From: Cristatella mucedo
Taxonomy: Eukaryota; Bryozoa; Phylactolaemata; Cristatellidae
Assembly (NCBI GenBank): GCA_009760855.2
Contig: WPIO01000013.1
Location: 1,016,001 to 1,080,000 of the forward strand
Reading direction: 5' to 3'
Length of the DNA: 64,000 nt
This document shows positions 42,419 through 60,651 of this stretch, piece by piece. The notes beneath the pieces were generated by a model. The model did no database searches and had not been told where the DNA came from. It saw nothing but the letters and a program-made list of their open reading frames with translations. Within the stretch, counting starts at the first letter, position 1. Every line of letters begins with the position of its first letter. Made by a program: the position numbers and the translations under genes.

Positions 42419-42520
42419 ATGATGCTCGAGCTTCGAGAGTTTCTGAACGAGGCGGAGTCCTCCTTAGCGAGCATAGCAAATGAGCTAGGATGGACCAGCA
42501 AAGATGTCATGAAAGGACCG
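42419..42520 (+). CDS. SNRNP48: SNRNP48 exon 1
   Basis: [20 protein letters not shown] then [14 protein letters not shown], with a CCG/GTAAGC donor in phase 0. It aligns with the LNEFVESGCRTLEEVTASLGW region of the human protein. The upstream in-frame sequence has a stop at 42329 and no ATG. Confidence 0.87.
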
Positions 42521-45500
42521 GTAAGCTGTTAGCTTATGTGGGTTAAGAGCTTGTCCAGTGCTTGCGCAGTTGGCGTTAATTTACCAATCCTTTGGTATCA
42601 ATTGATATTTCGTTGTCGTGGTCCTATGGCTTATGGCTGCGATCTGGCTGTATAAAAACATTATGATTTGTTCTGGAAAGCCATTTACCATTCTTTTTTT
42701 CAAGGCAACTTTGCAGCTAAACCTCTCCAAGCCCCAGGCTACGACGTCAATTGAGCTGCGATTACAGATATCATGAACAAATTAGTGAAATTACCTTCTA
42801 GAGCTAGTAAAAAAAATATGCATCTCAAAAATCGCTGAGCCACGTTAACTAGGTAGTTACTGGTTGGATTTTTCCATTGCGTCAAGGCTGAATAACTTTT
42901 GGCACGCAGTCGATAGCGACGAGTTATCATCACACGATACAATGAAAGAACACATGCATAGCAGAATCACAAGAGCAGTTGTATATAATTATTTTTTGGA
43001 GAAATCCGATAATTTTAACACCGTAGTGGCATATCACTAGTTCTTGGAGTGCCATTTCACGTTGAATTTAACCACCCATTTAGTGCAAGTTAACTTCGTG
43101 CACTCAAAAAATGAACTAATTGGCTCATGTTATGCCATTGATTTGTGTCTTTTCATTAAATTTCATTAGCCAGCCGTGGCCACTGTTAAGCCGAGCTATT
43201 GTCATGTCCAAAACACACGCTGAAGAACGGCACGCCACACACATTAACATATATATCGAAGTAAAGCAAAAATAATACATTTGTATAACGCCTTTAGAGG
43301 ACTTAATCTCTTTCAAGGTTCTTTACATAGGCTTCAAAGGAAGCACGATCGAATGATTAGTGTTAGCATGCTCAATATCAACAAGCAAACATGGTTAGAG
43401 GTGACATGTACAGGCTCAGCTTGCAATTATGGTCAGTGGCAGCATGCACAGGCAGCATACAAAGCACGCAAAGGACGTATGTCATGGACCCCCTTAATGC
43501 TGTGATAAATAGATGCGCTTTTAGCTTCATTTTAAATGTTAAGTCAGGGACATCGTGATGCCTGTCGGAAGTGAGTTCCACACTTTGGGAGCATACGAAC
43601 TAAAGGCACGGTCTCCAAAGGATTTGTGGTTCTTCCGAGGCGTAGGTAAATGATTAGAGTAAGACAATTGGGTGGTACTTAGCCTGATGAGGGAATAGGT
43701 CTGATAGGTCGGCTTGAGCCAAAGAATGAAAGGACCTAAAAGTAAGTGAGCGAACCTTGAAGTCGATTCCCTGCTTGACTGGGAGCCAGCGCAGGTCGAT
43801 GAGAAGTGATGTGATATGGCAACTGTGAGGCTCGCGACAGATCAACCTCGCTGAAGAGTTGTGCATCAACTTAAACACCCTATTACACAGGCCGGTAGAC
43901 CAGCAACCAGTTAGTTACAGTAGTTGACTCGGGATGTCACAAACACATGGACCAATTTAGATTTGGTATCCTTGTCTAAGCATGCCCACACGAATGATAG
44001 CAATGCTATGTAGCTGAAAGTAGGCACCTAGTCGTCTAATGAAAGGTCACTTTGGATTAGGGCACCTAAATTCTGTGCAGATGAAACAGGAAATAAGCTG
44101 GCACAGCCGATTTGAGCATTTAGTTTACCCATTTCTGAATCTCACTTGGTTTGCCTATAACTGGTAAGTTAGTTTTATCATCATTCAATTTTAAGAAAGT
44201 TTGCTGCCATCCGTATGAGGATGTCATCAATATATGCAACAAGGGAGTCAAGAGAATTTAACATGCTGGAGGGATGGGAGGGATTAAAGCAAAGGTGCAA
44301 CTGAGTGTCATCTACATAGACGTGAAAGCCTAGATTGTGCTTCACAATCATATCAGCAAGTGGGAGAGTGTAAACAGTGAAAAGAAGTTGATATACCAAG
44401 CACAGAGCCCTGAGATACATTCCTAAGGTCGTTATAAAAATCTAGAGAGTGGAGAGCTGATCATGATATTGGTAAAAATAAGGGGACGGTAAAATTGCTA
44501 AAAGACGGCTGATTCGGGAGCCTCATTTACATCTCAGCAGAGAGAGGCTAGCACCTACCCAGAGCTAAGACCAATACGAGCTTGCTTGCATTTATAAATG
44601 GGTTCCTCCCAAAAAATCATCCTTGAATTTCCTCCTGGGTAAAATCCTGAAATGTCCGAAATGTTTTTAGTCTTCACACTTTGGCAAGAACTTGGACGTA
44701 TTAATAATATTGACAACAATAAGAATTTTTTATACCTCTTATAAGAGAATCAGATCTCTTTCTAGGTATTTTCTAAATGGTGGAAAGGAATCATGCCAAT
44801 TGATTAGTAATAACTTACTTTATGTTAACAAGCATAATAATAATAATAATAATAATGCACTTGATAAAGCGCCCTCAGAGAACTCAATCTCTTCCTAGGC
44901 GCTTTACATTTACTGAGCATAAACACACTGGATTATTCCCTTGGACCGACAAATGCTGTGATGAGCAGGTGTTTTTAATTCATTCTTAAATGTCATTAAA
45001 TCATGGGTAGTCCTGAAGACAGTCGGTAGTGATTTCTAGGCTCTGGATGCATGCTAACTAAAGGCAAGGTCTGCAAAGGATTTGAGGTTGCTTAGAGGAA
45101 CAGCTTAGAAACTTGAGTAAGAATTGCAGGTGGTCTGATGCAAAGCTTTCTTAAGGAGTTTTTCGGGTAGGTATGCAGGAGTAAGAGAATGAAGGCACCT
45201 GACTTGACAGAACCTTTGAAGTTGATATGCTCTTGATTGGGCACCTGTGCTGGTCGGTGAGCGATGTAGCAGTTGCGAGTTTACGTTAGATAAGCCTTTG
45301 TTGATATTGAGCATTCAAATGCTAGAACTTCACATAACTGTGAACTTGAAGAGTTTAAACTTGAGGTTTCTGTAAGAGTGGCCACTAAAGTAGCAGCTTG
45401 TAGTCTATGCATTACAACCCCCTTTGCTGTCCTCAAAGTGACGCCTGGTGCTTCCGGGACTTCCCAGCTTCCGCTTAGACCAGCTGAGTTGGCGCAGTGG

Positions 45501-48500
45501 AGAGCTGATAGAGTGGGTGGGACCGACCGGAAGTCGTGCTTCGCTTGCCTTTAACAAGTGCCCGACATGCATAAATAGCAGCTGCCTGTGATTAGTCATG
45601 TGTTTTATGTTAACAAGATGGTCAGCACTCCGTCCATTGAAACAGTCAAATCCTGTGTGGTACAAGTAGTTTTCCAGTTTCTTTTTGGATGTCATCAAGT
45701 CATGACATCCCCTGACTTGACCACATTTAAAAAGAAATTAAAAACGCACCTATTTGTGACAGCATTTAGTGGGCCCCTGTGGTTCGTCCTTTATGTGCTT
45801 ATGAGTGCTGACACTGTGCGTGCTGCTACTAACCACATATGCATGCTGGCCCTGTACATGCCACCCCTAACCATGTCATTTTCATGTTGTTTATCAAGCA
45901 TGATACCACTCACCATTCGATCTTGTTTCCTTTGCAGCAAATGTAAAGCGCCTAGAAAGAGATTGAGTTCTTTGAGGGCGCTTTATCAAATGCATTATTA
46001 TTATTAGTATAGAAAATGGCATAAAACAGTCAACCTTGGTTATAAGCCAGCCGAAAATCCTGTGTAAAAAGTGGCACCGAGGTTGCTTATAGGCGATGTT
46101 CAAGTGAAATTTTATTCAAACATTTTTTATAACACAAGTTTATCATAAAATTAACCTAAAGGAGCAAACATTGAATTGTAATTTTGCTCTGACTATTCTT
46201 CAAAAGGATTTTTTCTCAATCATATCTTCAATAAGATATAAAGAATATTCAGTGGCATTCTCTTCCAAATATCGACGGGATAGAAAGAATATTCAGTGGC
46301 ATTCTCTTCCAAATATCGACGGACTGTGGCCAGCAACTTAGGGCGTTCGAATGAGAAATCTTCTGGGAAATATTTGCAAGATCGGAATCTTCTTCATCTT
46401 CAATGCCCTCTGAGGTATTTATGCGCTTTCGTTTCACCTCGTCGCAGATCTCCCTGTTGGTCAATGTGCCAAAGTACTCGATCTCGTTGTCAATGTGTAA
46501 GTATGCATCAAAATCATTTGATTTTAAACCACAGGCTCATAATCCTCGGACCTAGATTTCTTGAGCATCAATTTCATCTTGATCGTGTGATGTAACTGCC
46601 ACAAACACATTAACAAAACACATACACAAGCAGGACATACCTAAACAATAATTACATAAATCACAAAACCACAATTTTTAATAATATTTTACGCAGGCAG
46701 GTGTTTGATCAGACGAAATCGATTCGTTTTGTTATGAGTTGCTTATAAGTGAGGGAAGAATGGTGCTGGGAACAAAAAGTGGCAGGCTTATAAGCGAGGT
46801 TTGCTTATAACCGAGGCTCTTCATGTGTTAAAGATGGGACAAGAAATCGGGACATGGCCATATATTGCTTATATTCGAGATTTGCTTGTAAGCGAGTTGC
46901 TTATAGCCGAGGTTGAATATAGTGAGTTGAGACTTACCAGCGTTAGGAGTCTAGTAGCTGAAGGTACGGCAGTCTTCGAGGGATTTTGCTCTCGAGTTTA
47001 GAAGCGCAAGTAATCGACAGAAGTAATCATCAGAAGACAAGTAATCGTCAGAAGAGTGTTGCCAGCTGGCTGCAAGCTGGTGATTGCGGCTAAGGCCATC
47101 CATCCCCACTCCATTAGTGAGGCCATTTAATCAACCGATCTTCGACAATTTTAAGACCGGGTCAGGCTGCAGCCTGGTAACACCGGTGCTGCTCGACTGG
47201 TAGGATTGAGTTTATTGAGACCTTCGAGCTTGCAGTTGACCTACTTGGACGGTCGGAGTTGTGTGCTGCAGATGTACAGCTCGGTCCGGTGTGAGTAGTG
47301 GTCTCCCTATGTGCAGATCATCAGGGCTTGCTCCTTTTCTGCTTGATTTACGTCTATGCATGCCCAAACTTTTGGAACATGTGCATGTGTGCCAAGCTTC
47401 CTCTACAGCATGTGTACTGTGCCTAGAAAGAGATTTAATTCTCTTAGAGTTCTATACATGTGCCCTAGTATTATTATCGTGTCGCATATGGCATGAATAC
47501 CAGTTTATAGGTGGCCCGATTCACCCAAGTTGCTGTAGCAGTCGAGCAGTGGACCGAATGCTGGTGGTGGTTACTGGTTTGATGCTTGGCAAGCAGGCGG
47601 TTGGGGGCTTCTGGTGACCTCACCTCATCGGCAATCAACAGCCCAGTTAAATACAGTGGTACCTCGGCTTACGAGTTTAATTCGTTTCGTGCCGGAGCTT
47701 GTAACTCAAATTACTCGTATGTCAAATCAATTTTCCCCATTGAAATGAATTGAAATGTCATTAATCCATTCCGGACCCCCAAAAAACACTGCGATTTTTT
47801 GTCACACGTTTTTAAATTAAAAAATGTACTTATAAATAACGAATATTTTTTTAGAAACAATACAATAAACGGGTTTTATTAATCCTAATGTACAGGAGTA
47901 GCTTAGAGATCAGACGATTTGCAGATGCTGATAAGAGTTAGAGGAGAAAGGCTGAAATGAATATCTGAATCTTATTTGTCGATGTTTGCCCTTTTTTCCT
48001 CGTTTTCAGGTTATTGGCTGGGCTTAGCACTGACACACCAATTATCAGTTATGCGATGAACTCTCACACGATGAGATTGCCTAAATAGAGTACAGTACGT
48101 ACGTAGCTGTTCCTGCCGTAGTCGAATGTAATGCCGGAGTCTGGCGATCTTGTGCGTCCTAGCACCACGATGGCTCGCTCGAGTCTGTCTGGGAGCGAAC
48201 CAACAGGCCTGCACTTCGCTTGGAGTCACACTCTGGTCGTAGGGTTGCACCTTGCAACAGAATATCGTAAGCTGCCCTGCCCTTATTGGCCTGAGTAACC
48301 ACACACAGGCACTGTAACATTTGCTTCGGCAACTAGTGGTGGAGTATCTGAAGCTGGCTCGTAAAATCGGCTGAGAGACAACTCGTATCTCCAAACACTC
48401 GTATGTTGAGACATTCGTAAGTCGAGATACTACTGTAGTGGTTTTTGTTGTGGTCAGCTGACTTAACCGTCTAAGGCCGCTCATGATGCCACCCTTTGGT

Positions 48501-49510
48501 ACTCTGCTTTACCAAAGATTTTGTGCTTGACTAGTTGCTGAGCACAAACATGTTTATGCACACCTCAAAAATGTGTCTTCGAATCAAGGTATGTTTTCTT
48601 CGTATGTGGCTACTGCAGAATGATGCTGTGACTGTCATACGGCTTTAGATTCTGAATACAGTTGGCAGAAAATTGATGTTGCAGGATTTTGTCGCCTGCC
48701 CGCACAACCCTGCTCACGTGATTCCAGCAACTTCATTTGAGACTCACGTTGAGAAGTGCAAGCTGCTGTCGGCTGGTGTTAGCAAAGATGAGTTGGTAAG
48801 CGTCTAACTAGTAGTTTAGCTATGACATAGCTATTTTTGTGAACTTTTTTAATTTGTAGAGCTTGTCAGCCTGCCGTGATAGCGCAGGAGGTAAAGTTCT
48901 CGCTCTTCACAACCGAGGTCGTGGTCTGCTGCTATAAAAATAAAGCTGTTAAATCAGCTAACATTCTTTTATGTATTGTGTTGCATTCATTCAGCTCCTG
49001 ACCTAGCACATAAATTGCCGCGGCTTGTAGCATTTCGAAGAACTTTGCATGTTGCATTGCGTAGCTGAGGACTTGTTCAAGAATCGAGTGAGCTGATTAT
49101 AACATTGTTCATGTTGTCGTTGATGAGCTCGTTTGTGCATGCTGCAGCTATGGGATTCTTAGTCAATCGTTACCAGCTGATACCTTTTTGTTTGCCAGGA
49201 AGCAATACCTCCTTCGTCACACTTCTGTTATGAAGGTGTCAGTGCCAAGTACCATGTTGCTATTAACCTTGGTAAGCATGTATGCTTTGTCATCCTCGCT
49301 TGTGACACGAGGCTGTAGGAAGCAGTTGAGCATAGCCCTGCTTGTGGTCTCGTCGTGTGGTCGGACGCTTTCTTAGGTTGACACTCGCCGATGCTTCTTG
49401 GTGTGAGTGGTGTCTCGAGTGGACTTGTAGCACATTGAGCGCATCAAGTTCTGTTCGTTGCTAGCAGCTGGTGGCATTCGTGCTCATTACCCTTCCTGAT
49501 GTTGTTTATG

Positions 49511-49599
<89 letters not shown>

Positions 49600-52500
49600 C
49601 GCCGTCGCACCGTTCGCAAAATAACCTGCGCCGGTTGCCACGCCTGCTACTAGCCGGGTTTGCTGCACTGCGGTATTGCTGCGCGGACGCGAGCCGGATC
49701 CTGCAGCGATTGCGGCGGTCTTCTTTTTTGTAAACTTGGTTTTCTTTCTTCTTTTTTTAAGACGACAACAACCTATCAGAAATCCTGACGAAGCATCACA
49801 GTGCAGGTAGGTTGATAAAATGTCGATGCTTGTGATCTGAGGCACCATGTGTTTACTGACATGTCTTTTTATGCTGTCATGCTGCATGGCCATCGAAAGC
49901 CAAGAAAGAAGCGCTTTGGATGATGTGTATGACTGTTAAGTGTGACGTCTGTATGGGCTATGGCAGCTTGCGATTGATTTTCTAGGCTGGAGATGGCTGT
50001 TTGTCTCGAACCAACTTTAGATGCATGCTGGGAATGCCACTCGATGGATTAAGCTTGATGCTTTGGTGTGACTGCTTTTTGAGTGAAGCTCGGCTGCTCA
50101 TTTGTGGTGCACTCTGGTGCACCAGTTGATTGGTACTTACCAAGCACAGATACCGGTTCTCAACCATTTGGACGGTGGCTATTACCTGCAGAACATGCAG
50201 CCGGCCATCATGATAGCAATTGGTTGGGTTCGTGAATGATAGGCATAGCCGTTGGTTGGGCTTTAGCTACCAGGGAATACTTCAATATCTTTCTGTTGAT
50301 TGACTAGCAACTCTCTCACACATTGTACTGGTGCAGGCTTGGCAAAACGGATACACAGCTCTGTCTTGCAGGCCCATGTTTTGTAGCTCCAGTATTGTAT
50401 AATAATACAATTAATAGTAGCAATCAATTTTACATTGCTCTCAGAGAAGTAAATCTCTTTGTAATGTAATGTAATATATCTCCCTCTGTGACTCCATAAA
50501 GCTAAAAAGACTTTTGGTTTCCTATAGTGCACTCACAGCCTAAGCGGCTTTCGGTATGCATTCAGTAGCCAACAGACTTCATCTCACGCAACAAAGAGAA
50601 AGTGAGAAGCATAGCTGAGTCAGGAGAGCAGTTGAGGTAGTGAGTAGCATGGCAGTAGCAGCTCAGGATGGCTGGAAAGGATGTGCCCTAGTCGGCAGCA
50701 GGAGTATAGATGTTGTTATGTAAGAGTTGTGTACGTGATTTCCAGTCTAGGACCTGTGGAGCAAAAACTTTTGTCGCCAACGATCTTTAAGTGGAGGGTT
50801 AGAACAGCTAATTTATTGTCCACCCAGGACCTGAGAGCACGAGGAGGCTGAAACTGGTGCAGCAGTTCTGCTAGTTATGGAGGAGCCAAGCCGTAGTGGG
50901 CCTTGTGGTTCAGTGTACGAACTTAATATCCGCAGCTAGGCTTGTTTGTCGTGAGCGTCTCAGTTGCCACATCACACCACTTCTCGCCGACCTGCACAAG
51001 CTACCAGTCAAGCAACGGATTGACTTCAAGGTTTTGTCGTTCACTTTTAGGTCACTTCATTCTTTGGCTCCACCCTATCTCTCAGATCTACTCCCCCACC
51101 AGGCCAAGGATCGTACCACCCGCTTTTCGGAATCCAACAGTCTACTAATACCTCGTACAAACCTCAAATCCTTTGGAGACCGCACATTTAGTTCGTATGC
51201 TCTCAAAGCCTGGAACTCACTCCCGACTTGTGTCAGAACATCCCCTGACTTGAGCACATTTAAAAAGAACTTAAAAACACACCTATTTAGGACAGCATTT
51301 AGTAGGTCCCTGTGATTCGTCCTTCATGTGCTTATGCATGCTGACACCGTGCATGCTCCCACAAACCACATTTGCATGCTGACCCTGTGCATGTCACCCC
51401 TAACTATGTTATTCAAGTTGTTTATCAAGCATGATATTACTCACCATTCAATCGCGCTTCCCTTTGCAGCAAATGTGAAGCACCTAGAAAGAGATTGAGT
51501 TCTCTGAGGGTGCTTTACCAAGTGCATTATTATTATTATTATCAATCGGCAGCCATCCAAGCTCTTTCAGCAAAGAAGACACGTGATCAAACCTCTGGGA
51601 TTTGTAAACTAGCCTTGCAGCTATATTCATCACCAGCTGTGGTGGCCTAGTGGCCTTTTTTGGTAACCCAGCCAAAAGGGAATTGCGATTATCTAGCCTA
51701 GACAGAACGAAGGAGCTAGTTAAATTTTGTGCAAGCCACCGTGGAAGACAGTTCCCATTCTTAGATAGGGATCGACGTGATGGCTAACTGTGGTAGCAGT
51801 CTTCTTAACGAACTTTTAAGATTTAGGCAAGGCAGCATTTACTTGATCAGATGCTGCAGAATATTCCGACGGCCTAATGACAAATACAGCTAAGTATCTT
51901 CAGCATAAAAGTGATAGCCTATTCCATGGGCTCGAATCACTTTTCCCAGAGGTTGTATATAAATGGAGAACAGCAATAGACCGAAGACAGACCCTTGTGA
52001 GACTCCACATGTGACTGGTCTGGTAGATGAGACCTGCCCATCACACGACACTGATTGAACATGATGAGACAAGTACGATTTGGATCGCGCAAGTGCCTCA
52101 TCTGCCAGACCGATCGTTGTTCTAATCGTTCAAGTAGGATATTATTATCAAGGCAGCTGATAAATCTATCATTGCCAGGGCAGTTCCATTCCTGTTATTG
52201 TTGCTGCATAGGATGTCATTGGTTACACGGAGGAGAGCAGTTTCAGTGGAGTGCTGCCGCCTAAACTCCGAATGAAATTGTTCTGACAATTTATTCTTAT
52301 CCATATGTGCTACAAGCTGCTTAGCGACAATTTTTTCAAGAATCTTTGGCAACAGAGGAAGAAGGGAAACTTGACGATAGTTAGCAAGGACCTCGGTATC
52401 TAATCCAGGCTTTTTGAGTATCGGTCAAACAATGGCTGATTTGAAGAACTTGGGTACAATCCATTTTTCCAGATAAGCATTAACAATCTTAGTTATGGCT

Positions 52501-54834
52501 GGGCTAAGTTTGTCTGCCAGTGAAGATCACAGAGGGGATGTATAGGTCCTTCAGGAGATCTTTTTACTAGTCGTTATTAAGGTAGCCACATCGAACGAAG
52601 AAACCTCGGAAAATTCCGTAAGGAAGATCACATGTTGTGATTCAACAATTGCTTTAGTCGGAGGGGCTTTGTGGAGGTATGGCTGTGCACATTTTTTTAG
52701 TGAAGAAGGCTGAAAAGTTTTCGGCTGAGCCGTTGATATCTGGGGAGTGAGACCTCTCCGAGTTGGCCAGACAATTGTTTACCGTCTTACAAATTCCTTT
52801 TTGGGTCTGACTGGCAGGACTTGAGTTTTTGAATGAAAAAAAGAAGCCCTGGCTTTTCTAAACTTCTGGTGTAGACTCGAAAGTAGTCTTTGAACTTGAC
52901 TAGTTCGTCGTCAGACCCAGACTCACTAAAGTGGCGTTCAAGCCTACAATTAAAATGGCTCATCTTTTGAAGTTTTTTTGTAAATTGAAAGGAATCTCCA
53001 CAACTGTGTACACGGACAGAATGTACAGGAGCATGCTCGTTAAGGGCACCTCATCAGTGCCACGATTCACTGCATCAGTGAGGGAATCGAGGCTGTCAGT
53101 CAAGTCTGGGTGCAGATCAAGAAGACCTGCCTCACAGACAGATTTCAAAAATTAGTCTTGGTCAATGCTTTTTAAGTTGCATCGCTGGACAAGCTCGATG
53201 CTACCCTGCGAGTACAACTGATCAGGAGCAGAATAATATAAGAAATATATAATTCATATATAGAGCCCCAAGAGAACTTAATCTCTATTCAGGCGCTTCA
53301 CATATGCCTCGGGGCTCGATCCCACGACCTCAGTCAGTCCTTGGTCGGGGCGAGCACCTTAATCGCTAGACCAGTAAATGAGACAGAGCAATGATCCGAG
53401 ATGGTCAACGGGCACACAACTAGGTTAGTCGGGCAGACATTATTAGTGATAACGAGATCCATGATATGGCCACCGACGTGAATGGTACCTGCACATGTGC
53501 ATGTACGTATAGTAACGATACTTTTACATGTAATTGCTAAGAGAAGCAGCATGGCTGCTCTCTTTCAAGTTCAAAAGGTTAAAAAACGTCAAGATTGGCT
53601 GATTTAATAGGTCTAACTCTTTAAAATAAAGTAAACTGAGATTAAATTCAGCTGACTAAACAACCTCATTTATATAATGGCTGTAGAGCCCTAGCAGCTA
53701 TCAATTCCACTTGCAGCTGGCGATACACAATTGTGTGGTGCAGAATGTGAACGTGGATGGTGAAGAGCATAGCGGCCTAATAAGCTTTGGTCATACTTGT
53801 AGCAAATAATAAGGCATTGCAAGCTGCAGGATTCAAATCCACGACACGAGTGAGTCATGAGTTGAATGCCTTATAGCTGGGCTAGTTCTGCCCCATTGTT
53901 GATCTTAGTAATATTGACATGCCTGCTCTGACATTCCAAAACCCGATACCATGTCAGGCAGTAGCCACATTGGTGAGGGTCTCTCTGGTGTTAGTAGCCA
54001 TTATCTCTTAAGGTAATCAGTAAATTTTGAACTTATTGAAAGGGACCGTTTTGACAGGTGCCTTGGTTTGGCCAGGGTTAGGTGCTAGTCTTTAACGACC
54101 AAAGTCGTGGGCTCGAATCCAGTGGCATATGTAAAGCGCCTGGATAGAGATAAGGTTCTTTAAGGCCGACATAAGAATGATTTATACTTATACTTTGAAA
54201 TTATAAGGTTCTTTAAGGCCGACATAAGAATGAATTATACTTATACTTTGAAATTAATGTCCAGCTTGGTAAGGCAGAATTCAGCCCCTAGCAAATGGTC
54301 ATCAGCTGATTTCCGGCAAGGGGATCGATCCTGCTGGGGCTGAATTCTGCCTTACCAAGCTGGGCGTTAATTTCAAAGTATAAGTATAAATCATTCTTAT
54401 GTCGGCCTTAAAGAACCTTATCTCTATCCAGGCGCTTTACATATGCCACTGGATTCGAGCCCACGACTTTGGTCGTTAAAGACTAGCACCTAATCCTGGC
54501 CAAACCAAGGCACCTGTCAAAACGATCCCTTTCAATAAGTTCAAAATTTACTGATTACCTTAAGAGATAATGGCTACTAACAACAGAGAGACCCTCACCA
54601 ATGTGGCTACTGACTGACATGGTATCGGGTTTTGGAATGTCAGAGCAGGCATGTCAATATTACTAAGATCAACAATGGGGCAGAACTAGCCCAGCTATAA
54701 GGCATTCAACTCATGACTCACTCGTGTCGTGGATTTGAATCCTGCAGCTTGCAATGCCTTATTACCTGCTACAAGTAGGACTAAAGCTTATAGGCTGCTA
54801 TGCTCTTCACCATCCACGTGAGTACACAAACACA

Positions 54835-54881
<47 letters not shown>

Positions 54882-54910
54882 TGAAATATATATATATATA
54901 TATATATATA

Positions 54911-54945
<35 letters not shown>

Positions 54946-55029
54946 TGAAATATATATATATACTGAAATATATATATATATATATATAAATATAAGTGTA
55001 TATACAAATACACGCACACACACTATATA

Positions 55030-55064
<35 letters not shown>

Positions 55065-58000
55065 ATATATATATATATATATATATAAAGTGTCTCACTT
55101 GAGGGATACTGACGATCGTTACTTTTTCTGAGCTGGGTAAAGCCTTACTAAGTCGCTTATGAAAAAGGGCAGCATTGGCAGCAGGTCGCAGGGGGCACGG
55201 TGGCCAGTTGATCGTTTAGGGTGTTGTTTGATCGCCCAGGTGTCGAACGTCGGTCAATGTCCATTGGTACAGTAAAAATGCAGCTGCCTTACAGTGTTGC
55301 ACTTTCGCATCCATATTTTAAGTGTAATTGCTCTTGGCAACTATTTGACCCTTTGTTCACCTCTGCTGTCGATATGCACTTGTCTAATCGATTCTGCGCT
55401 GACACCCTGGAGTGGCTCCTGCAGTATTAAGATTTCTAGTCGTACGACGTCACTGCGAAGCCTCAATGTTCTTTACGTTGCTTGTAGTCGCTTTGCCTCA
55501 GCGGGACTGACGGCTGCTGCGTGCCGGCAGGCGGTAGCAGCACCGGTGCTCTGGGATACCATGTACCCGATATCCTTTGCTGCTGAATGCAGCTGCCCTC
55601 AGCTTTTGTATCCTTGATGAGATTGGTCAGCTTACTGGCATACGAGCTGGTGCGTGCCACCTGTGCCTGTTTTCTATCTATTTTTCTATCTATTACCGAC
55701 TATTGGAGATCGTGGTCGTTTTTATTTTTTGTCTTTTTTTAGCACCGTCGTAGCTTGATTGAGCGTCCATGTGCATGCCCCGGCTGCTGCATCCTGCTTG
55801 GAAAAATGCAAGCGTCCCGCTCCTAGTCGTAGCCTTAACGTGACCGCCGAGATTGCAAGCTCATGCCATCGCCACGCCTCATCACACTCAGCCCCCCAAG
55901 CTGCGATCTAATGCGTGGTCGTCATCTCACCACCGCGCTGCAGGTCACGGAAGCCTGAGAGTGAAGAAAGCGCTGCCACTGACCAACGACCGGGCCGTTT
56001 CGGAGCTCACACAGAATGAGCGGCTCGCCATTTACGAGCATTGCATTGGAGAGGCCAAGCGACAGCACCAGCTCACCTCCATACCGAAGGAGGAGCTACT
56101 TCTGCTCGATCCCGGCGACGGCGATCGAAAAGGTGGCCGCTCGCGCGCGGCCCAGAGCTTACTCGCTGCTGCGGGGTGTGCATGTTGGTGCTTTTGCAGC
56201 TGCTGCTGCTCACTGGCTGACCTTTGCGGTTGGCGTGCGCAGCCAGCCAGTCAATCAGCTATCGGAAGTCTCCCACGATTCCAGTAAGGTGAGCCGTGAT
56301 GGCACACTAGGTATGGCGGTTGCTTTCACGACCTCGGTCCCGAGGTCGTGGGTTTGATTCCTGCGGTGGACGATTCTTTATCGTTACTGCAAGCGGTGGT
56401 GATAGCCGTAAAGGCTCTTCTGTCGCAATACAAAAAGAGGCTGTTAAAACAGCTAGGATTTATTTAAGCTGCTGTCACATCGTGTTGACTCATCGGATGC
56501 GACCCGCCGAATCCACGTGCTATTCGGCAGCAGTGCTAGCATACATGCTGCCAGCTGTGCGAAGGCCTCTGCTTTGCACTGAAGTAGCAGTGCTTGCTCT
56601 GCCAGGGCAACACGTCACGGCTTGACTGTTATTATTTTTTTGGCCATCATCTGGCATTGTTTGTAAACCTTAAGTCTGCCTACTTTCAGCTACATAACAT
56701 TGCTATCTTCTCTGTCGTGAGTGTCGCAGTTGCCACATCACACCACTTCTTGCAGACCTGCACTGGCTACCAGTCAAGCAACGGATTGACTTCAAGGTTT
56801 TGTCGCTCACTTTTAGGTCACTTCATTCTTTGGCTCCAGCCTATCTCTCAGATAAACTCCCCCATCAGGCCAAGCACCGTACCACCCGCTTTTCGGAATC
56901 CAGCAGTGTACAAATACCCCGTACAAACCTCAAATCTTTTTGGGACCGTGCATTTAGTTTGTATGCTCCCAAAGCCTGGAACTCCCTCCCGACCTACGCC
57001 AGAACATCCCCTGACCTGACCACATTTAAAAAGAACTTAAAAATACACCTATTTAGGACAGCATTTAGTGGGTCCCTGTGATTCGTCCTTGATGTGCTTA
57101 TGTGTGCTGACACTGTGCATGCTGCCACTAACCACATTTACATGCTGACCCTGTGCATGTAAATGTGGTTAGTGGCAAACCTAACCATGTTATTTATTTT
57201 GTTTGTTTATTAAGCATGATTTTACTCACCATTTCAATTGCATTTCCCTTTGCAGCAAATGTAAAGCGCCCAGAGAGAGATTAAGTTCACTGAGGGCGCT
57301 TTATCAAGTGCATTATTATTATTATAAGCCTAGCTGCAGAGTTTTGCACAAGCTGTAAGCACCTGAGAGCACAAGGCGGTAGACCAGCAAGCAGTGCCTG
57401 CGCACAGTGCTGCTCTACTCATTTTTGGCAAAGCACAAAACTGAGGCTGCAGTGTGGACAACCAAGTGGCTGCCAGCTGCAGTCGTGTGCCTGACTGAGT
57501 AGAGAATAGCTAGCTATGTCTGTAAATGCTGCCGCGCTGTTAAGTTGGTGTGCACATTTTAGATGGCACCGAGAAATCGCAGTTGGAGAAACTAGCAGAG
57601 CTTCGAGATTACAAAAGGCGCCGGCAGACATACAGAGCAAAGAATGTTCATACCACTAAGAAATCGTACACCGAGGTAGGTTGTAAGCCTGCTGTGCAGC
57701 TTCGCCTGGACATCAGTCTGGGAGAGTGTAACTTGGCAGTGCACTCGATTGGCGTAGCAGAGCCAGGTGAGTCGGGTAAGATGGAATGGGGGTCCGTAGT
57801 TCATGTTAGTGGCAATTCTTCTGTCCATTATCAGCCTTCAGACAGTCAAGACGAACGGAATGCATGTCCATTTTTAGATCATACGGGACGTTATCCTTAA
57901 TCAAATGTCGATGCTGACTTCATCAGCGCCCGTCTCTGGCAAAGGCGGCGATTCGGTACGTGCTGGCACGGCTGCTGCAAGCAAGGGCCAGGCCGATCTC

Positions 58001-60651
58001 TCGGCAGAATCGACTGCAGCTGCCAACGGCCGGTCGGATACCTCAAAGCTGATAGATAGCGATGTCACGTGAGTAGCTGACTCTGCCGTAACATATGCTC
58101 GTGAATTTTCTCATCGACCGTTCTCAAGAGATGCCAGTGCTATATATATAGCCGTAGGGAGAAGCTATGGATGAGAGGGGGTATAGTAGCAACCACCCTC
58201 CTGCCTCTCGACTCCTGACCCCGAATTGTGAGGCCTCACTCACCCAGTGCAGCCTTTTAATAAGGGTGTGCACTGCCAGTTGGTAATTATAATTTAATTT
58301 TGTTGTAATATATTTAATTTCATTTAATATATCAATTACTTTTGACTTCTTTGCATAGCTAAGATTATGTATTACCCCTGTTTGACCTAAGGCACTCACC
58401 CCCTGAGTTTTATCAGGTAAACAAGGCATGATTGGGAAAAAGGATTAAAATCAGATTGAAAGTATCTGCTCTTTGAAAGGGTCGGAAAATGTGGCCAAAT
58501 GATGCTGCATGTAGTCGCACCTACTTGGCATCAAGGTTTGACCCTGCTTTGCAAAGATCTTGGATGTGACAAGTAGTTTTCAGACATACACTCAAACGCA
58601 AAAGTATTTACGCTGGTGAATAGGTACCACCACGAAGCCGCTGTCCCTTCAGTTTATTGACTTTCTCTTCGTCGAACAGCACTGAAAACATGTGCACGAG
58701 GCGGTTTAATATTTTTTATTATCACAACTAAGGTTACACATGCATGACTGGGTACTCACTTCAATAGGAGGTCGGACCACCTCTGTTCTTTATGACTTTA
58801 TGTATTCGCCAGGGCATTGACTCAATCAGCTTTCGGCAAACATCCGAACTATTGCAGTCCCACAGATGCTTAAGCCGACCAAACAGCTGCTGGGGGGGGG
58901 AAGACAAGACGCTGTTCTCAGCTCTAAGCGACTGCTCCAACCTCAATCCCACAGATGCTCAATAGGGTTGAGACTGGGAGATTGGCTTGGCCAACTAAGG
59001 ACTCGGACACCTGAATCGCCGAAGAATTGCTTCATTGCACTTTCAGTATGCTTGGGATCAATATCCATTTGCCAAACGTAGTCCTCCCCCACAAGAGCTC
59101 TGGCACAGGGCATGCCAACATTTTTGCCGATGTCCATGAACACGTTCCTGTACATGATCCCATTGATTCTGTGTGTAGAGCCCCTTTGCTGGAAGTCGGC
59201 AGTCTCCAGTCGGCAGCTGTAGGACGCTTGCTGAAAGGCGCGTGTTTGTGTGACCTAACCTGACTGGCAAGCTATCGCGACGCGAGTGGGACCGCTCTGT
59301 TAAATGCCGCGTCTCGTGTACGCTCGTCACGTGGTCTCTTCGTATCGTCGATAAGCATGCCAATATGACTCATTTTGCAGTTACCACCCTGTCCTATCTG
59401 CCAACGACACCCGGCCAACGAAGCATACAGCAGCCGAGTATGACGTCGAATCGAGCCGAGGGACAGCAGCAGCCCTGCCCAAGCAGGCCACTGTCGACGA
59501 TGGCTCGTATGCAGACGTGCACGATGCTGCTGACATCCCCAGTACGAGTAGGGGTCACAAACGCCACAAACGCCGCAGCAGCGCTGGCAGCAGCCGGTCC
59601 CGGTCACGTACTCGTAGCAGGTGAGCAGGATACTTGGCACGTATGCCATGTTCACAATCTTGCTGGTTCTCATACATAATAAGGCAGCGATACTTGTCTG
59701 TCAGCACACAGTTTGCCTTTGGGGTGATGCATGCAGTTTTCTCCATGAAATCATGTTAGGTCTAACGCAGAATCAAGTTTTGTCAGTTAATTATTGGATA
59801 CCCAAGGACAAATTGCACAGGCAGTGAAGCATGTTTGGACTATACGCCTACAAGTAGCCAAAAGTCCGTTAAATGCTTTTAAAAATGATGGGGGTTTTCC
59901 CCTAGACTGGGCCTGTGAGCTGTAAAGTGAATGAGAATATTCTCCACATGCTATCTCGTTGCACTACAATAATGAAGTGCATCCAGATGGTTCGCCACAC
60001 TTTAGGTTTATATTTAACCTAGTTGCCGTAGAATGCTGGCTATGAATGCCGACTTTCTTGTCAGATTTGAGTGCTCGCAAGATCCCGGTCGCAGTTCGCC
60101 ATCAAAGAGTGAGGCCTTGCATTTACTTACCTGCTGCCCGCTGCTAGTCATCGCTCCCCACCTAGTTACCCCAGCACCCTGGGGTCGCTTGCAAGGAGGC
60201 AACCTTTACAATAGCACGAGGAATCCTGCAAGTATGCACCCGCTACATTTAGCAGTATTGGCCATTTGCCAGTTGCTTGCGCAGCAGCACACTGCTCGCA
60301 CCGACTGCTAGGGCCGATGCTTCCAGCTTGTGGGTAATTCGACTTCTTCGTTTCTCCATCGGTGCACTGTTTAAGCTCCGTGACGACGGCTCGTTAACTC
60401 GTCGGCAGCGTGCATGGTCGTTCGCTATCAGTTTTTTCTAGTGTGCCACGCTTTTGGTGCGTATTGTCCTGTCCGCTGAATGGGAGCTCATCGTGCTCAT
60501 GATCAGCGTTTTTTGCCCGACCGTCGTGACTTTATTGCTGTGCTGTAGGTCAAAAAGCCATAAGAAGCACAAGCACAAGCACAAGCGAAAGAAGGCACGA
60601 CGATCGTCACGAGATGAGGCGGCCGGCTCGGTCGAAGCTCGGCAAACCTAG
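42419..60651 (+). CDS. SNRNP48: U11/U12 snRNP 48 kDa protein homologue, 9 exons, complete
   Basis: The exons are 42419-42520, 48685-48795, 49199-49271, 49762-49806, 55944-56132, 57563-57675, 57878-58068, 59381-59620 and 60549-60651. Every phase agrees, giving 388 codons and a stop. In the family this protein sits in the U11/U12 di-snRNP and recognises U12-type 5' splice sites. Exon 1 has [10 protein letters not shown]. Exon 2 has the CHHC zinc finger: Cys39, His45, His55 and Cys59, spaced C-x5-H-x9-H-x3-C as in human U11-48K. Exon 5 has [12 protein letters not shown]. Exon 6 has [17 protein letters not shown] and TKKSYTE. Exon 7 has [10 protein letters not shown]. Exons 8-9 end in an Arg/Ser and Lys/His-rich tail. 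Human SNRNP48 is 339 residues; the extra length is a low-complexity insert in exons 7-8. The start is the first ATG pair of an open exon. AATAAA signals follow the stop. Confidence 0.94.
43265..44485 (-). mobile_element. LINE-A copy with YVDD reverse transcriptase
   Basis: The minus strand from 44.4 kb has [20 protein letters not shown] then DDTQLHLCF, next [20 protein letters not shown]. Later come [20 protein letters not shown] then [11 protein letters not shown], and the 3' UTR with the tail at 43270. It is broken by frameshifts. It lies in SNRNP48 intron 1, antisense to the gene. Confidence 0.85.
44825..45345 (-). mobile_element. LINE-A 3' fragment
   Basis: An (ATT)n tail at 44836, the hairpin, and a degenerate C-terminal frame ([20 protein letters not shown]) on the minus strand. 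It lies in SNRNP48 intron 1. Confidence 0.8.
45695..46015 (+). mobile_element. LINE-A 3' fragment
   Basis: [20 protein letters not shown] and a stop are followed by the 3' UTR, hairpin and (ATT)n at 46000. It lies in SNRNP48 intron 1. Confidence 0.85.
46026..46917 (-). mobile_element. Pogo/Tigger-type DNA transposon remnant
   Basis: The ends are inverted: CAACCTTGGTTATAAGC at 46030 and its complement GCTTATAGCCGAGGTTGAA at 46896. The minus strand, 46464-46249, encodes [20 protein letters not shown] then [20 protein letters not shown], the acidic C-terminal pattern of pogo/Tigger DDE transposases (EEDE..P.ISH.EAL). An internal 44-bp segment is duplicated (46241-46324). It is nonfunctional. 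Confidence 0.7.
47395..47480 (+). repeat. SINE-2 tail fragment
   Basis: TACTGTGCCTAGAAAGAGAT and TTAATTCTCTTAGAGTTCTATACATG, the shared hairpin with a diverged second arm. A short TTATTAT follows. Confidence 0.6.
47655..48437. mobile_element. Terminal-inverted-repeat element, probably a nonautonomous pogo-type MITE
   Basis: The left end CAGTGGTACCTCGGCTTACG and right end CGTAAGTCGAGATACTACTG are inverted repeats flanked by TA. A second inner repeat (CTCGTATGTCAAA / ACTCGTATGTTGAGAC) follows. No transposase frame is seen. It lies in SNRNP48 intron 1. Confidence 0.8.
48685..48795 (+). CDS. SNRNP48: SNRNP48 exon 2 (CHHC zinc finger)
   Basis: This is 37 codons: [20 protein letters not shown] then [17 protein letters not shown]. 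The complete CHHC finger is in this one exon. In human U11-48K this finger binds the U12-type 5' splice site. The acceptor is TTGCAG and the donor GTAAGC. Confidence 0.95.
48870..48965 (+). repeat. SINE-1 partial copy
   Basis: CCGTGATAGCGCAGGAGGTAA and ACCGAGGTCGTGG, then directly the end ATAAAGCTGTTAAATCAGC. The middle is deleted. It lies in SNRNP48 intron 2. Confidence 0.65.
49199..49271 (+). CDS. SNRNP48: SNRNP48 exon 3
   Basis: [20 protein letters not shown] then AINL, matching NPEFFYENVKIPSITLN in human. The acceptor is TTTGCCAG and the donor G/GTAAGC, phase 1. Confidence 0.85.
49513..49595. repeat. (GA)n microsatellite
   Basis: This is a pure GA run of about 41 units in SNRNP48 intron 3. 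Confidence 0.98.
49762..49806 (+). CDS. SNRNP48: SNRNP48 exon 4 (45 nt)
   Basis: [15 protein letters not shown] between CTTTTTTTAAG and G/GTAGGT. It was found because its phases bridge exons 3 and 5 exactly. The 6.1-kb intron after it carries the inverted repeat and the U12-site pair. Confidence 0.78.
50455..50935 (-). mobile_element. LINE-B 3' end
   Basis: Read in reverse, the C-terminal region and 3' UTR end GAGTTACAGAGGGAGATA(TATTAC)n at 50460. It lies in SNRNP48 intron 4. Confidence 0.82.
50896..51540 (+). mobile_element. LINE-A 3' end with intact C-terminal frame
   Basis: The frame reads [20 protein letters not shown] then [20 protein letters not shown], running open to [20 protein letters not shown] and a stop. 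The full 3' UTR, hairpin and (ATT)n tail follow. This is one of the least decayed copies here. It lies in SNRNP48 intron 4. Confidence 0.92.
51540..53560 (-). mobile_element. LINE-B copy, antisense in SNRNP48 intron 4, interrupted by a SINE
   Basis: From 53.5 kb in reverse: endonuclease ([25 protein letters not shown]), the linker, then reverse transcriptase with [20 protein letters not shown] then [47 protein letters not shown], and FYAEDT in place of YADDT. It ends [25 protein letters not shown]-2 copy (53245-53372) sits in the endonuclease. It is inactive: the catalytic YADD is changed and frames are broken. Confidence 0.88.
53245..53372 (-). repeat. SINE-2 inserted in a LINE-B
   Basis: In reverse: TGGTCTAGCGATTAAGGTGC, GAGGTCGTGGGATCGAGCCC, CATATGTGAAGCGCCTGAAT, the hairpin, and an A/T tail. 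Confidence 0.85.
53751..54819. repeat. Large inverted repeat, arms of about 0.5 kb
   Basis: The left arm (53751-54288) and right arm (54336-54819) are near-perfect reverse complements around a 47-nt loop. Both begin or end with ACGTGGATGGTGAAGAGCAT. The left arm also has a roughly 55-nt tandem duplication (54150-54255) absent from the right. Each arm contains a SINE-2 copy. It lies in SNRNP48 intron 4, sense orientation irrelevant; a transcript would fold into a long hairpin. Confidence 0.93.
54837..55087. repeat. (AT)n and (AAAT)n compound microsatellite
   Basis: AT runs with CTGAA interruptions are followed by an AAAT run (55028-55065) and more AT. It abuts the outer end of the inverted repeat. 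Confidence 0.98.
55570..55615 (+). promoter_or_regulatory. Paired U12-type 5' splice-site motifs, candidate U11 snRNP splicing enhancer (USSE)
   Basis: ATATCCTTT at 55570 and GTATCCTTG at 55608 both fit the U12-type donor consensus RTATCCTT. They lie 38 nt apart in SNRNP48 intron 4, 330-370 nt before exon 5. In mammals, insects and plants a tandem pair of such motifs in the 48K gene binds U11 and activates an upstream 3' splice site, giving a nonproductive mRNA and thus feedback control. Candidate upstream acceptors here are TTTGCCTCAG (55501) and TGCCGGCAG (55526). No U12-type intron starts here. Confidence 0.7.
55944..56132 (+). CDS. SNRNP48: SNRNP48 exon 5
   Basis: [20 protein letters not shown] then [20 protein letters not shown], continuing to DPGDGDRK. 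The acceptor is GCTGCAG. The donor G/GTGGCC is weak but is the only one in phase with exon 6. Confidence 0.9.
56285..56465 (+). repeat. SINE-1 copy
   Basis: GAGCCGTGATGGCACACTAG, GAGGTCGTGGGTTTGATTCC, the GTGGTGATAGCCGTAAAGGC body and an AAAAAGAGGCTGTTAAAACA end. It lies in SNRNP48 intron 5. Confidence 0.85.
56715..57330 (+). mobile_element. LINE-A 3' end
   Basis: The frame runs from [20 protein letters not shown] to [20 protein letters not shown] and a stop. The 3' UTR follows, with a small inverted duplication of ACATGCACAGGGTCAG-like sequence at 57130-57170, then the hairpin and (ATT)n. It lies in SNRNP48 intron 5. Confidence 0.9.
57563..57675 (+). CDS. SNRNP48: SNRNP48 exon 6 (most conserved block)
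   Basis: [20 protein letters not shown] then [11 protein letters not shown] is nearly identical to the human block. The acceptor is CATTTTAG and the donor GTAGGT, phase 0. Confidence 0.96.
57878..58068 (+). CDS. SNRNP48: SNRNP48 exon 7
   Basis: [10 protein letters not shown] continues the conserved block. A Ser/Ala/Gly-rich stretch then ends [10 protein letters not shown] before AC/GTGAGT, phase 2. The acceptor is CATTTTTAG. Confidence 0.88.
58585..59225 (-). mobile_element. Tc1/mariner-type transposase fragment
   Basis: The minus strand has [38 protein letters not shown] and, after a frame change, [13 protein letters not shown]. This is the DD34E catalytic end of Tc1-like transposases (Asp in D.DPKHT, Glu in NPIEHLW). 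The N-terminal DNA-binding part is missing. An end sequence, AAACGCAAAAGTATTTACGC, is at 58600. It lies in SNRNP48 intron 7. Confidence 0.88.
59381..59620 (+). CDS. SNRNP48: SNRNP48 exon 8 (RS-rich)
   Basis: The acceptor CATTTTGCAG is followed by 79 codons ending [20 protein letters not shown], a short RS domain as in human. The donor AG/GTGAGC is in phase 2. Confidence 0.88.
60549..60651 (+). CDS. SNRNP48: SNRNP48 exon 9 (C-terminus)
   Basis: The acceptor GCTGTAG is followed by [20 protein letters not shown] then [13 protein letters not shown] and TAG. The Lys/His/Arg-rich end fits the family. Confidence 0.9.

What the first reader, a model, noticed from the sequence alone, without database searches (positions are those of the whole stretch)
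55570..55615. Candidate U11-binding autoregulatory element (USSE) in the SNRNP48 intron
Seen: two RTATCCTT motifs, 38 nt apart, in the intron that follows the exon matching human exon 4 of a U11/U12-48K gene. Known: the 48K gene of vertebrates, insects and plants carries a tandem pair of U12-type donor motifs that bind U11 and switch on a nonproductive exon (exon 4i in human). A seven-base-fixed motif occurring twice within 40 nt is rare by chance. Inferred: this lineage keeps the same feedback loop. The 30-nt gap between motifs seems long for this element and needs comparison.
Basis: partly seen in the sequence, partly recalled or inferred. Interest (0 to 1): 0.9.

Follow-up and report, generated by a model that had tools for sequence, protein, structure and literature searches.

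The report
Paired U11-site motifs in SNRNP48 intron
An unnamed animal, probably near the molluscs, carries two copies of the minor-spliceosome docking sequence in an intron of its SNRNP48 gene where other animals keep a self-limiting splicing switch, so it probably has a version of that known switch, although nothing here shows that it works.

Summary
ATATCCTT (55570-55577) and GTATCCTT (55608-55615) are the two best U12-type donor matches in intron 4 of a nine-exon SNRNP48 (U11-48K) gene, which I rebuilt, including its 45-nt exon 4 at 49762-49806. They lie 374 and 336 nt before exon 5, in the intron reported to carry a U11-binding splicing enhancer (USSE) in other species. A pair within 60 nt arises in 9 of 20000 shuffles of this intron. 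The pair is not unique: the 572-Mb genome has 177 with gaps of 20-50 nt, so about 0.001 is expected per such intron.

Best reading: a USSE-type feedback element. U11 snRNP on the pair would promote an upstream U2-type acceptor (AG ending at 55487, 55501 or 55530); all 9 exon forms modelled from these without U12 splicing carry a premature stop.

Open points: the 30-nt gap could not be compared with known USSEs; no relative's DNA or RNA-seq was available; the acceptor at the best distance is the weakest; a strong acceptor at 55743 is unexplained. A U12-type branch site with an AG 13 nt on (55831-55851) might let the second motif act as a real donor.

The parts
55570..55577 (+). Motif 1, ATATCCTT (followed by T), U12-type 5' splice site consensus
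   Evidence: 14.6 bits, best in intron 4
55608..55615 (+). Motif 2, GTATCCTT (followed by G), U12-type 5' splice site consensus
   Evidence: 13.7 bits, second best in intron 4
55578..55607 (+). 30-nt spacer; a GCUGC/GCAGC hairpin is possible but not more stable than shuffles (z -0.61)
   Evidence: longer stretch (z -0.56)
55529..55530 (+). Candidate target U2-type acceptor AG, exon would start at 55531, 39 nt before motif 1; weak (2.4 bits)
55500..55501 (+). Candidate target acceptor AG, exon would start at 55502, 68 nt before motif 1; 6.1 bits
55486..55487 (+). Candidate target acceptor AG, exon would start at 55488, 82 nt before motif 1; 7.4 bits
55650..55655 (+). Candidate U2-type donor CTG|GTGCGT closing a poison exon; 6.8 bits
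55831..55851 (+). Possible U12-type branch site AGCCTTAAC (55831-55839) and acceptor AG (55850-55851), 13 nt from the branch A
   Evidence: chance 92 of 5000 shuffles, with in-frame join 14 of 5000
49762..49806 (+). SNRNP48 exon 4, 45 nt
   Evidence: best of 482 candidate acceptors, 15.7 against 5.2 bits
49807..55943 (+). SNRNP48 intron 4, GT-AG, 6137 nt
55944..56132 (+). SNRNP48 exon 5 ([23 protein letters not shown]...)
42419..60651 (+). SNRNP48 gene model: exons 42419-42520, 48685-48795, 49199-49271, 49762-49806, 55944-56132, 57563-57675, 57878-58068, 59381-59620, 60549-60651; 388 codons open. Exons 8 and 9 rest on frame and splice sites, not on homology

Best explanation
[quoted passage not shown] When U11/U12 di-snRNP is plentiful it binds both motifs and, through exon-definition contacts, recruits the major spliceosome to a U2-type acceptor just upstream (AG ending at 55530, 55501 or 55487). 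The exon so defined ends at a U2-type donor at 55650 or runs on into exon 5; it carries an in-frame stop, so the mRNA is unproductive and U11-48K falls. Shown here: gene, intron, motifs, rarity, and a stop in all 9 modelled exon forms that start at those acceptors and use no U12 donor. Inferred: U11 binding, use of the acceptor, loss of the mRNA, and the feedback.
For: Right gene and right intron, with exon 4 found and matched to the vertebrate exon. Two full consensus matches that are the best two sites of the intron. A pair this close in 9 of 20000 shuffles and about 0.001 expected from the genome's own count. Candidate acceptors 39-82 nt upstream and a donor downstream. Premature stops in 9 of 9 modelled forms, 765-1166 exon nt before the last junction. 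Reviews place a tandem U12 5'ss element with this role in SNRNP48 of animals and plants and mention an extended exon 5 form that holds it.
Against: The 30-nt gap is not shown to occur in any known USSE. The acceptor at the recalled 25-50 nt distance is the weakest (2.4 bits). The strongest acceptor (55743, 13.1 bits) lies after the pair and is not explained. A U12-type branch site and AG follow the pair, whereas a USSE is not used as a donor. No conservation or RNA evidence. The genome holds 176 other such pairs.
Confidence: 0.7

Rival explanations
1. Motif 2 is a real U12-type donor. An exon 55502-55607 is joined to 55852 through a U12-type intron (branch site 55831-55839), in frame with exon 5, adding 66 residues; motif 1 is a decoy or a second U11 site. 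Without minor splicing the same exon carries a stop.
For: Branch-site score 9.8 bits and AG 13 nt away. Such a site occurs in 92 of 5000 shuffles, with an in-frame open join in 14 of 5000. The join gives an open frame of 454 residues.
Against: The test was devised after the site was seen. Of the 28 homologues aligned, only P0098 and P0102 have long inserts near there, and these were not compared with this one. Exon 4 to exon 5 directly gives a complete protein with bivalve-like spacing. An exon starting at 55502 scores -7.1 bits as an exon 4.
Confidence: 0.1
2. Chance: two unrelated matches in a long intron.
For: The genome has 177 such pairs, many in repeats; single motifs are common, and 49 of 100 window shuffles have 3 or more.
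Against: 9 of 20000 shuffles of this intron; about 0.001 expected by the genome's own count; the one intron where a pair was predicted beforehand.
Confidence: 0.1
3. Motif 2 is part of a coding cassette exon 55593-55649 (57 nt) and motif 1 is only its polypyrimidine stretch.
For: Acceptor 6.3 bits and donor 6.8 bits; the exon keeps the frame and is open, 407 residues in all.
Against: Its translation scores -3.6 bits against the orthologous segment, exon 4 scores 15.7; the protein is complete without it.
Confidence: 0.05

Closest known systems
USSE of SNRNP48/U11-48K (Verbeeren 2010 and Niemela 2015 recalled, not held; reviewed in PMC3584512 and PMC8329584, passages read)
   Same: Same gene and, by exon matching, same intron as recalled for human exon 4i; two U12 5'ss motifs in non-coding sequence; acceptors upstream; stops in the modelled exons.
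   Different: Gap of 30 nt between motifs (range in known cases not seen); acceptor at the recalled distance is weak; a possible U12 acceptor downstream; function untested.
USSE of RNPC3/U11-U12-65K (PMC5473595, passages read)
   Same: U11 bound at a tandem U12 5'ss activates an upstream U2-type acceptor.
   Different: Lies in the 3'UTR part and gives a nuclear-retained long-3'UTR mRNA; RNPC3 of this genome was not found, as the searches did not complete.
Srsf10 autoregulated minor intron (PMC7244321, passages read)
   Same: Minor and major splice sites compete, and one outcome is not protein-coding; resembles the U12-donor rival.
   Different: Another gene, no tandem U11 enhancer, and the minor donor there is shown to be used.

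Membership tests
SNRNP48 USSE | Host gene encodes U11-48K | tested here: met
   Match to human U11-48K chain 8r7n_F, E 9.8e-25; 22 homologues
SNRNP48 USSE | Lies between exon 4 and exon 5 (position recalled; extended exon 5 form seen) | tested here: met
   Exon 4 at 49762-49806, exon 5 at 55944; numbering agrees with a bird gene model and two rodent isoforms
SNRNP48 USSE | Two U12-type 5' splice site consensus motifs in tandem | tested here: met
SNRNP48 USSE | Spacing between the two motifs as in known elements | not testable with these tools
   30-nt gap here; primary papers not held
SNRNP48 USSE | U2-type acceptor 25-50 nt upstream (recalled) | tested here: inconclusive
   AG at 55529-55530, 39 nt, but 2.4 bits; stronger ones at 68 and 82 nt
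SNRNP48 USSE | Resulting exon makes the mRNA unproductive | tested here: met
   In-frame stop in 9 of 9 modelled forms, sequence only
SNRNP48 USSE | Motifs are not used as splice donors | tested here: inconclusive
   Possible U12 branch site and AG downstream; no RNA data
SNRNP48 USSE | Conserved between related species | not testable with these tools
   No relative's DNA: none in genome contigs or viral contigs; own genome has no relatives held
SNRNP48 USSE | Binds U11 snRNP and responds to its level | not testable with these tools
   Needs experiment; U11 RNA of this genome not found because the search did not complete
U12-type intron | U12 5'ss, U12 branch site and AG at suitable distance | tested here: met
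   55608, 55831-55839, 55850-55851
U12-type intron | Flanking stretches code for conserved protein | tested here: not met
   Exon from 55502 scores -7.1 bits as exon 4; no equal insert seen in homologues, two long inserts not compared

The most novel reading that the evidence does not exclude
A USSE whose second motif can also serve as a true U12-type donor, with its own branch site and acceptor at 55831-55851. The poison exon would then gauge minor-spliceosome activity directly: U11 binding defines the exon, and completed U12 splicing turns a stop-containing exon into an in-frame one.
Probability: 0.07. Interest if true: 0.75.

Novelty: new member of a known kind. Interest (0 to 1): 0.42.

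Why it matters
If real, it adds a probable lophotrochozoan to the SNRNP48 feedback loop and shows that the two U11 sites may stand 30 nt apart, which bears on whether two bound di-snRNPs must touch. The possible U12 acceptor would make a test case for an enhancer that can become a splice site. If it is only an ordinary orthologue, it is a modest confirmation of a known conserved loop.

Tried and rejected
A constitutive U12-type intron before exon 5 was dropped as the main reading once exon 4 was found at 49762-49806 with fitting phases. The idea that 55502-55607 is exon 4 (it shares the tripeptide LWD with scallops) failed: -7.1 bits, rank 135 of 292 stop-free candidates. Cassette 55593-55649 as another exon 4: -3.6 bits. 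A first search for exon 4 with a profile over open frames gave no significant hit; the true place was its top hit at E 0.52. A spacer hairpin bringing the motifs together: 63 of 200 shuffles fold as well. RNA families in the window: 0 at gathering score. Related DNA: pattern matches but no confirmed relative in genome contigs or viral contigs. A tree of 30 homologues and the first 225 residues of this protein puts it beside two unnamed metagenome proteins (support 0.91), next to bivalves and gastropods (0.84), with the chiton elsewhere; the 12 highest identities are 37-43% across several phyla, so the phylum is a guess.

Full report
What was claimed.

The gene. Translations from the window match the solved human U11-48K chain (8r7n_F, E 9.8e-25) and 22 proteins of the large protein set, best the scallop Mizuhopecten at 34% identity. 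Profile searches over open frames found exons 1, 2, 5 and 6, and exons 3 and 7 below the inclusion threshold; exons 8 and 9 rest on frame and splice sites. Exon 4 was missing at first: a profile gave no significant hit, its top one (E 0.52) being the right place. Joining exon 3 in silico to each of 482 AG sites and scoring against 24 orthologues settled it: 292 gave a stop-free segment, and 49762 scored 15.7 bits, the next 5.2. The nine-exon model has GT-AG introns with fitting phases and one open frame of 388 residues. From the HH pair of exon 4 to the LT of exon 5 it has 18 residues, as in Pinctada (counted by eye). A partial bird gene model (P0100) begins at the residue matching the start of exon 4, and rodent isoforms (P0018, P0020) lack about the zinc-finger exon 2, so the numbering agrees with vertebrates as far as this goes. 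Intron 4 is 49807-55943, and the motifs stand 374 and 336 nt before exon 5.

The motifs. Both are present as described. With a U12 donor matrix from memory they are the two best sites of intron 4 (14.6 and 13.7 bits; the next is 7.6). A pair within 60 nt arose in 9 of 20000 dinucleotide shuffles of the intron, in 19 of 20000 Markov introns trained on it and in 2 of 19340 trained on the window. The genome has 177 pairs with gaps of 20-50 nt on both strands, against 58 for the reversed control; many of those listed are copies of one repeat. So the pair alone is not diagnostic; its place is. Around it the sequence has only short matches elsewhere in the window. The spacer hairpin is ordinary.

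Splice sites around it. With matrices from memory, upstream acceptors would start exons at 55488 (7.4 bits), 55502 (6.1) and 55531 (2.4); the eight acceptors of the gene model score 0.1 to 14.2 on the same scale, its eight donors 4.1 to 10.5. A U2-type donor lies at 55650 (6.8 bits). Nine exon forms from those three acceptors that use no U12 donor (cassette to 55649, the same with 55743, and run-on into exon 5) all stop, at 55508, 55584 or 55615, with 765-1166 exon nt left before the last junction. This fits an unproductive isoform. Against a simple story: the acceptor within the recalled 25-50 nt distance is the weakest; the strongest acceptor (55743, 13.1 bits) lies after the pair, and an exon from it alone also stops; an acceptor inside the spacer (55593) with the 55650 donor gives a 57-nt in-frame exon and 407 residues.

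A possible U12 acceptor. AGCCTTAAC at 55831-55839 (9.8 bits) with an AG whose G is 13 nt from the branch A fits a U12-type 3' end; two other branch-like sites above 9 bits exist in intron 4. In shuffles of 55616-55943 a site of at least 9.5 bits with an AG at 9-16 nt came up in 92 of 5000, and with an in-frame open join in 14 of 5000. The test was devised after seeing the site, which flatters it. The join 55502-55607 to 55852 gives 454 residues; among 28 homologues only P0098 and P0102 have long inserts in that area, and I did not compare them. It is kept as a rival and as the most novel reading.

What is known. Reviews describe the USSE as a tandem repeat of the U12 5'ss in non-coding parts of SNRNP48 and RNPC3, bound by U11, not used as a donor, and activating an upstream U2-type acceptor; the SNRNP48 product is degraded (PMC8329584 passages; PMC3584512 passages; PMC5473595 passages; PMC6865273 passages). 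The loop is reported for plants and animals and as absent in Diptera. PMC5473595 also mentions an extended exon 5 form of 48K that holds the USSE, which agrees with an element upstream of exon 5. Verbeeren 2010, Niemela 2015 and Turunen 2013 (RNA) were not seen; I tried the last two by id without success, and what I say of them, including the 25-50 nt distance and human exon 4i in intron 4, is recalled. Four literature searches listed no title or opening abstract about this element in a mollusc-like animal, which says little, since most journals are not held.

Verdict. A USSE-type element is the best reading (0.7). Its wide gap, the weak near acceptor, the strong acceptor at 55743 and the possible U12 acceptor are open. 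Comparison with relatives and RNA-seq would decide.

Noticed in passing
55718-55743: A strong U2-type acceptor (long T-rich tract, exon would start at 55743, 13.1 bits) stands 200 nt before the exon 5 acceptor, which scores only 5.6; an exon from it hits a stop at once.
   Followed up: partly
53780-54791: Large inverted repeat inside intron 4: arms 53780-54203 and 54368-54791, 424 nt, 98% complementary, with a nested pair 54203-54288 / 54336-54421.
   Followed up: partly
43966-43973: A third, single GTATCCTT on the + strand, in intron 1 of the same gene.
   Followed up: no
own genome G000, many contigs: A dispersed repeat that reads about GTATCCTTCCTT...GGTATC...AGAATATCCTT supplies many of the listed motif pairs.
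   Followed up: no
50875-51312 and 56698-57078: Two similar open frames ([24 protein letters not shown]...), by look the end of a reverse-transcriptase element, lie in introns 4 and 5; the identification is recalled.
   Followed up: no
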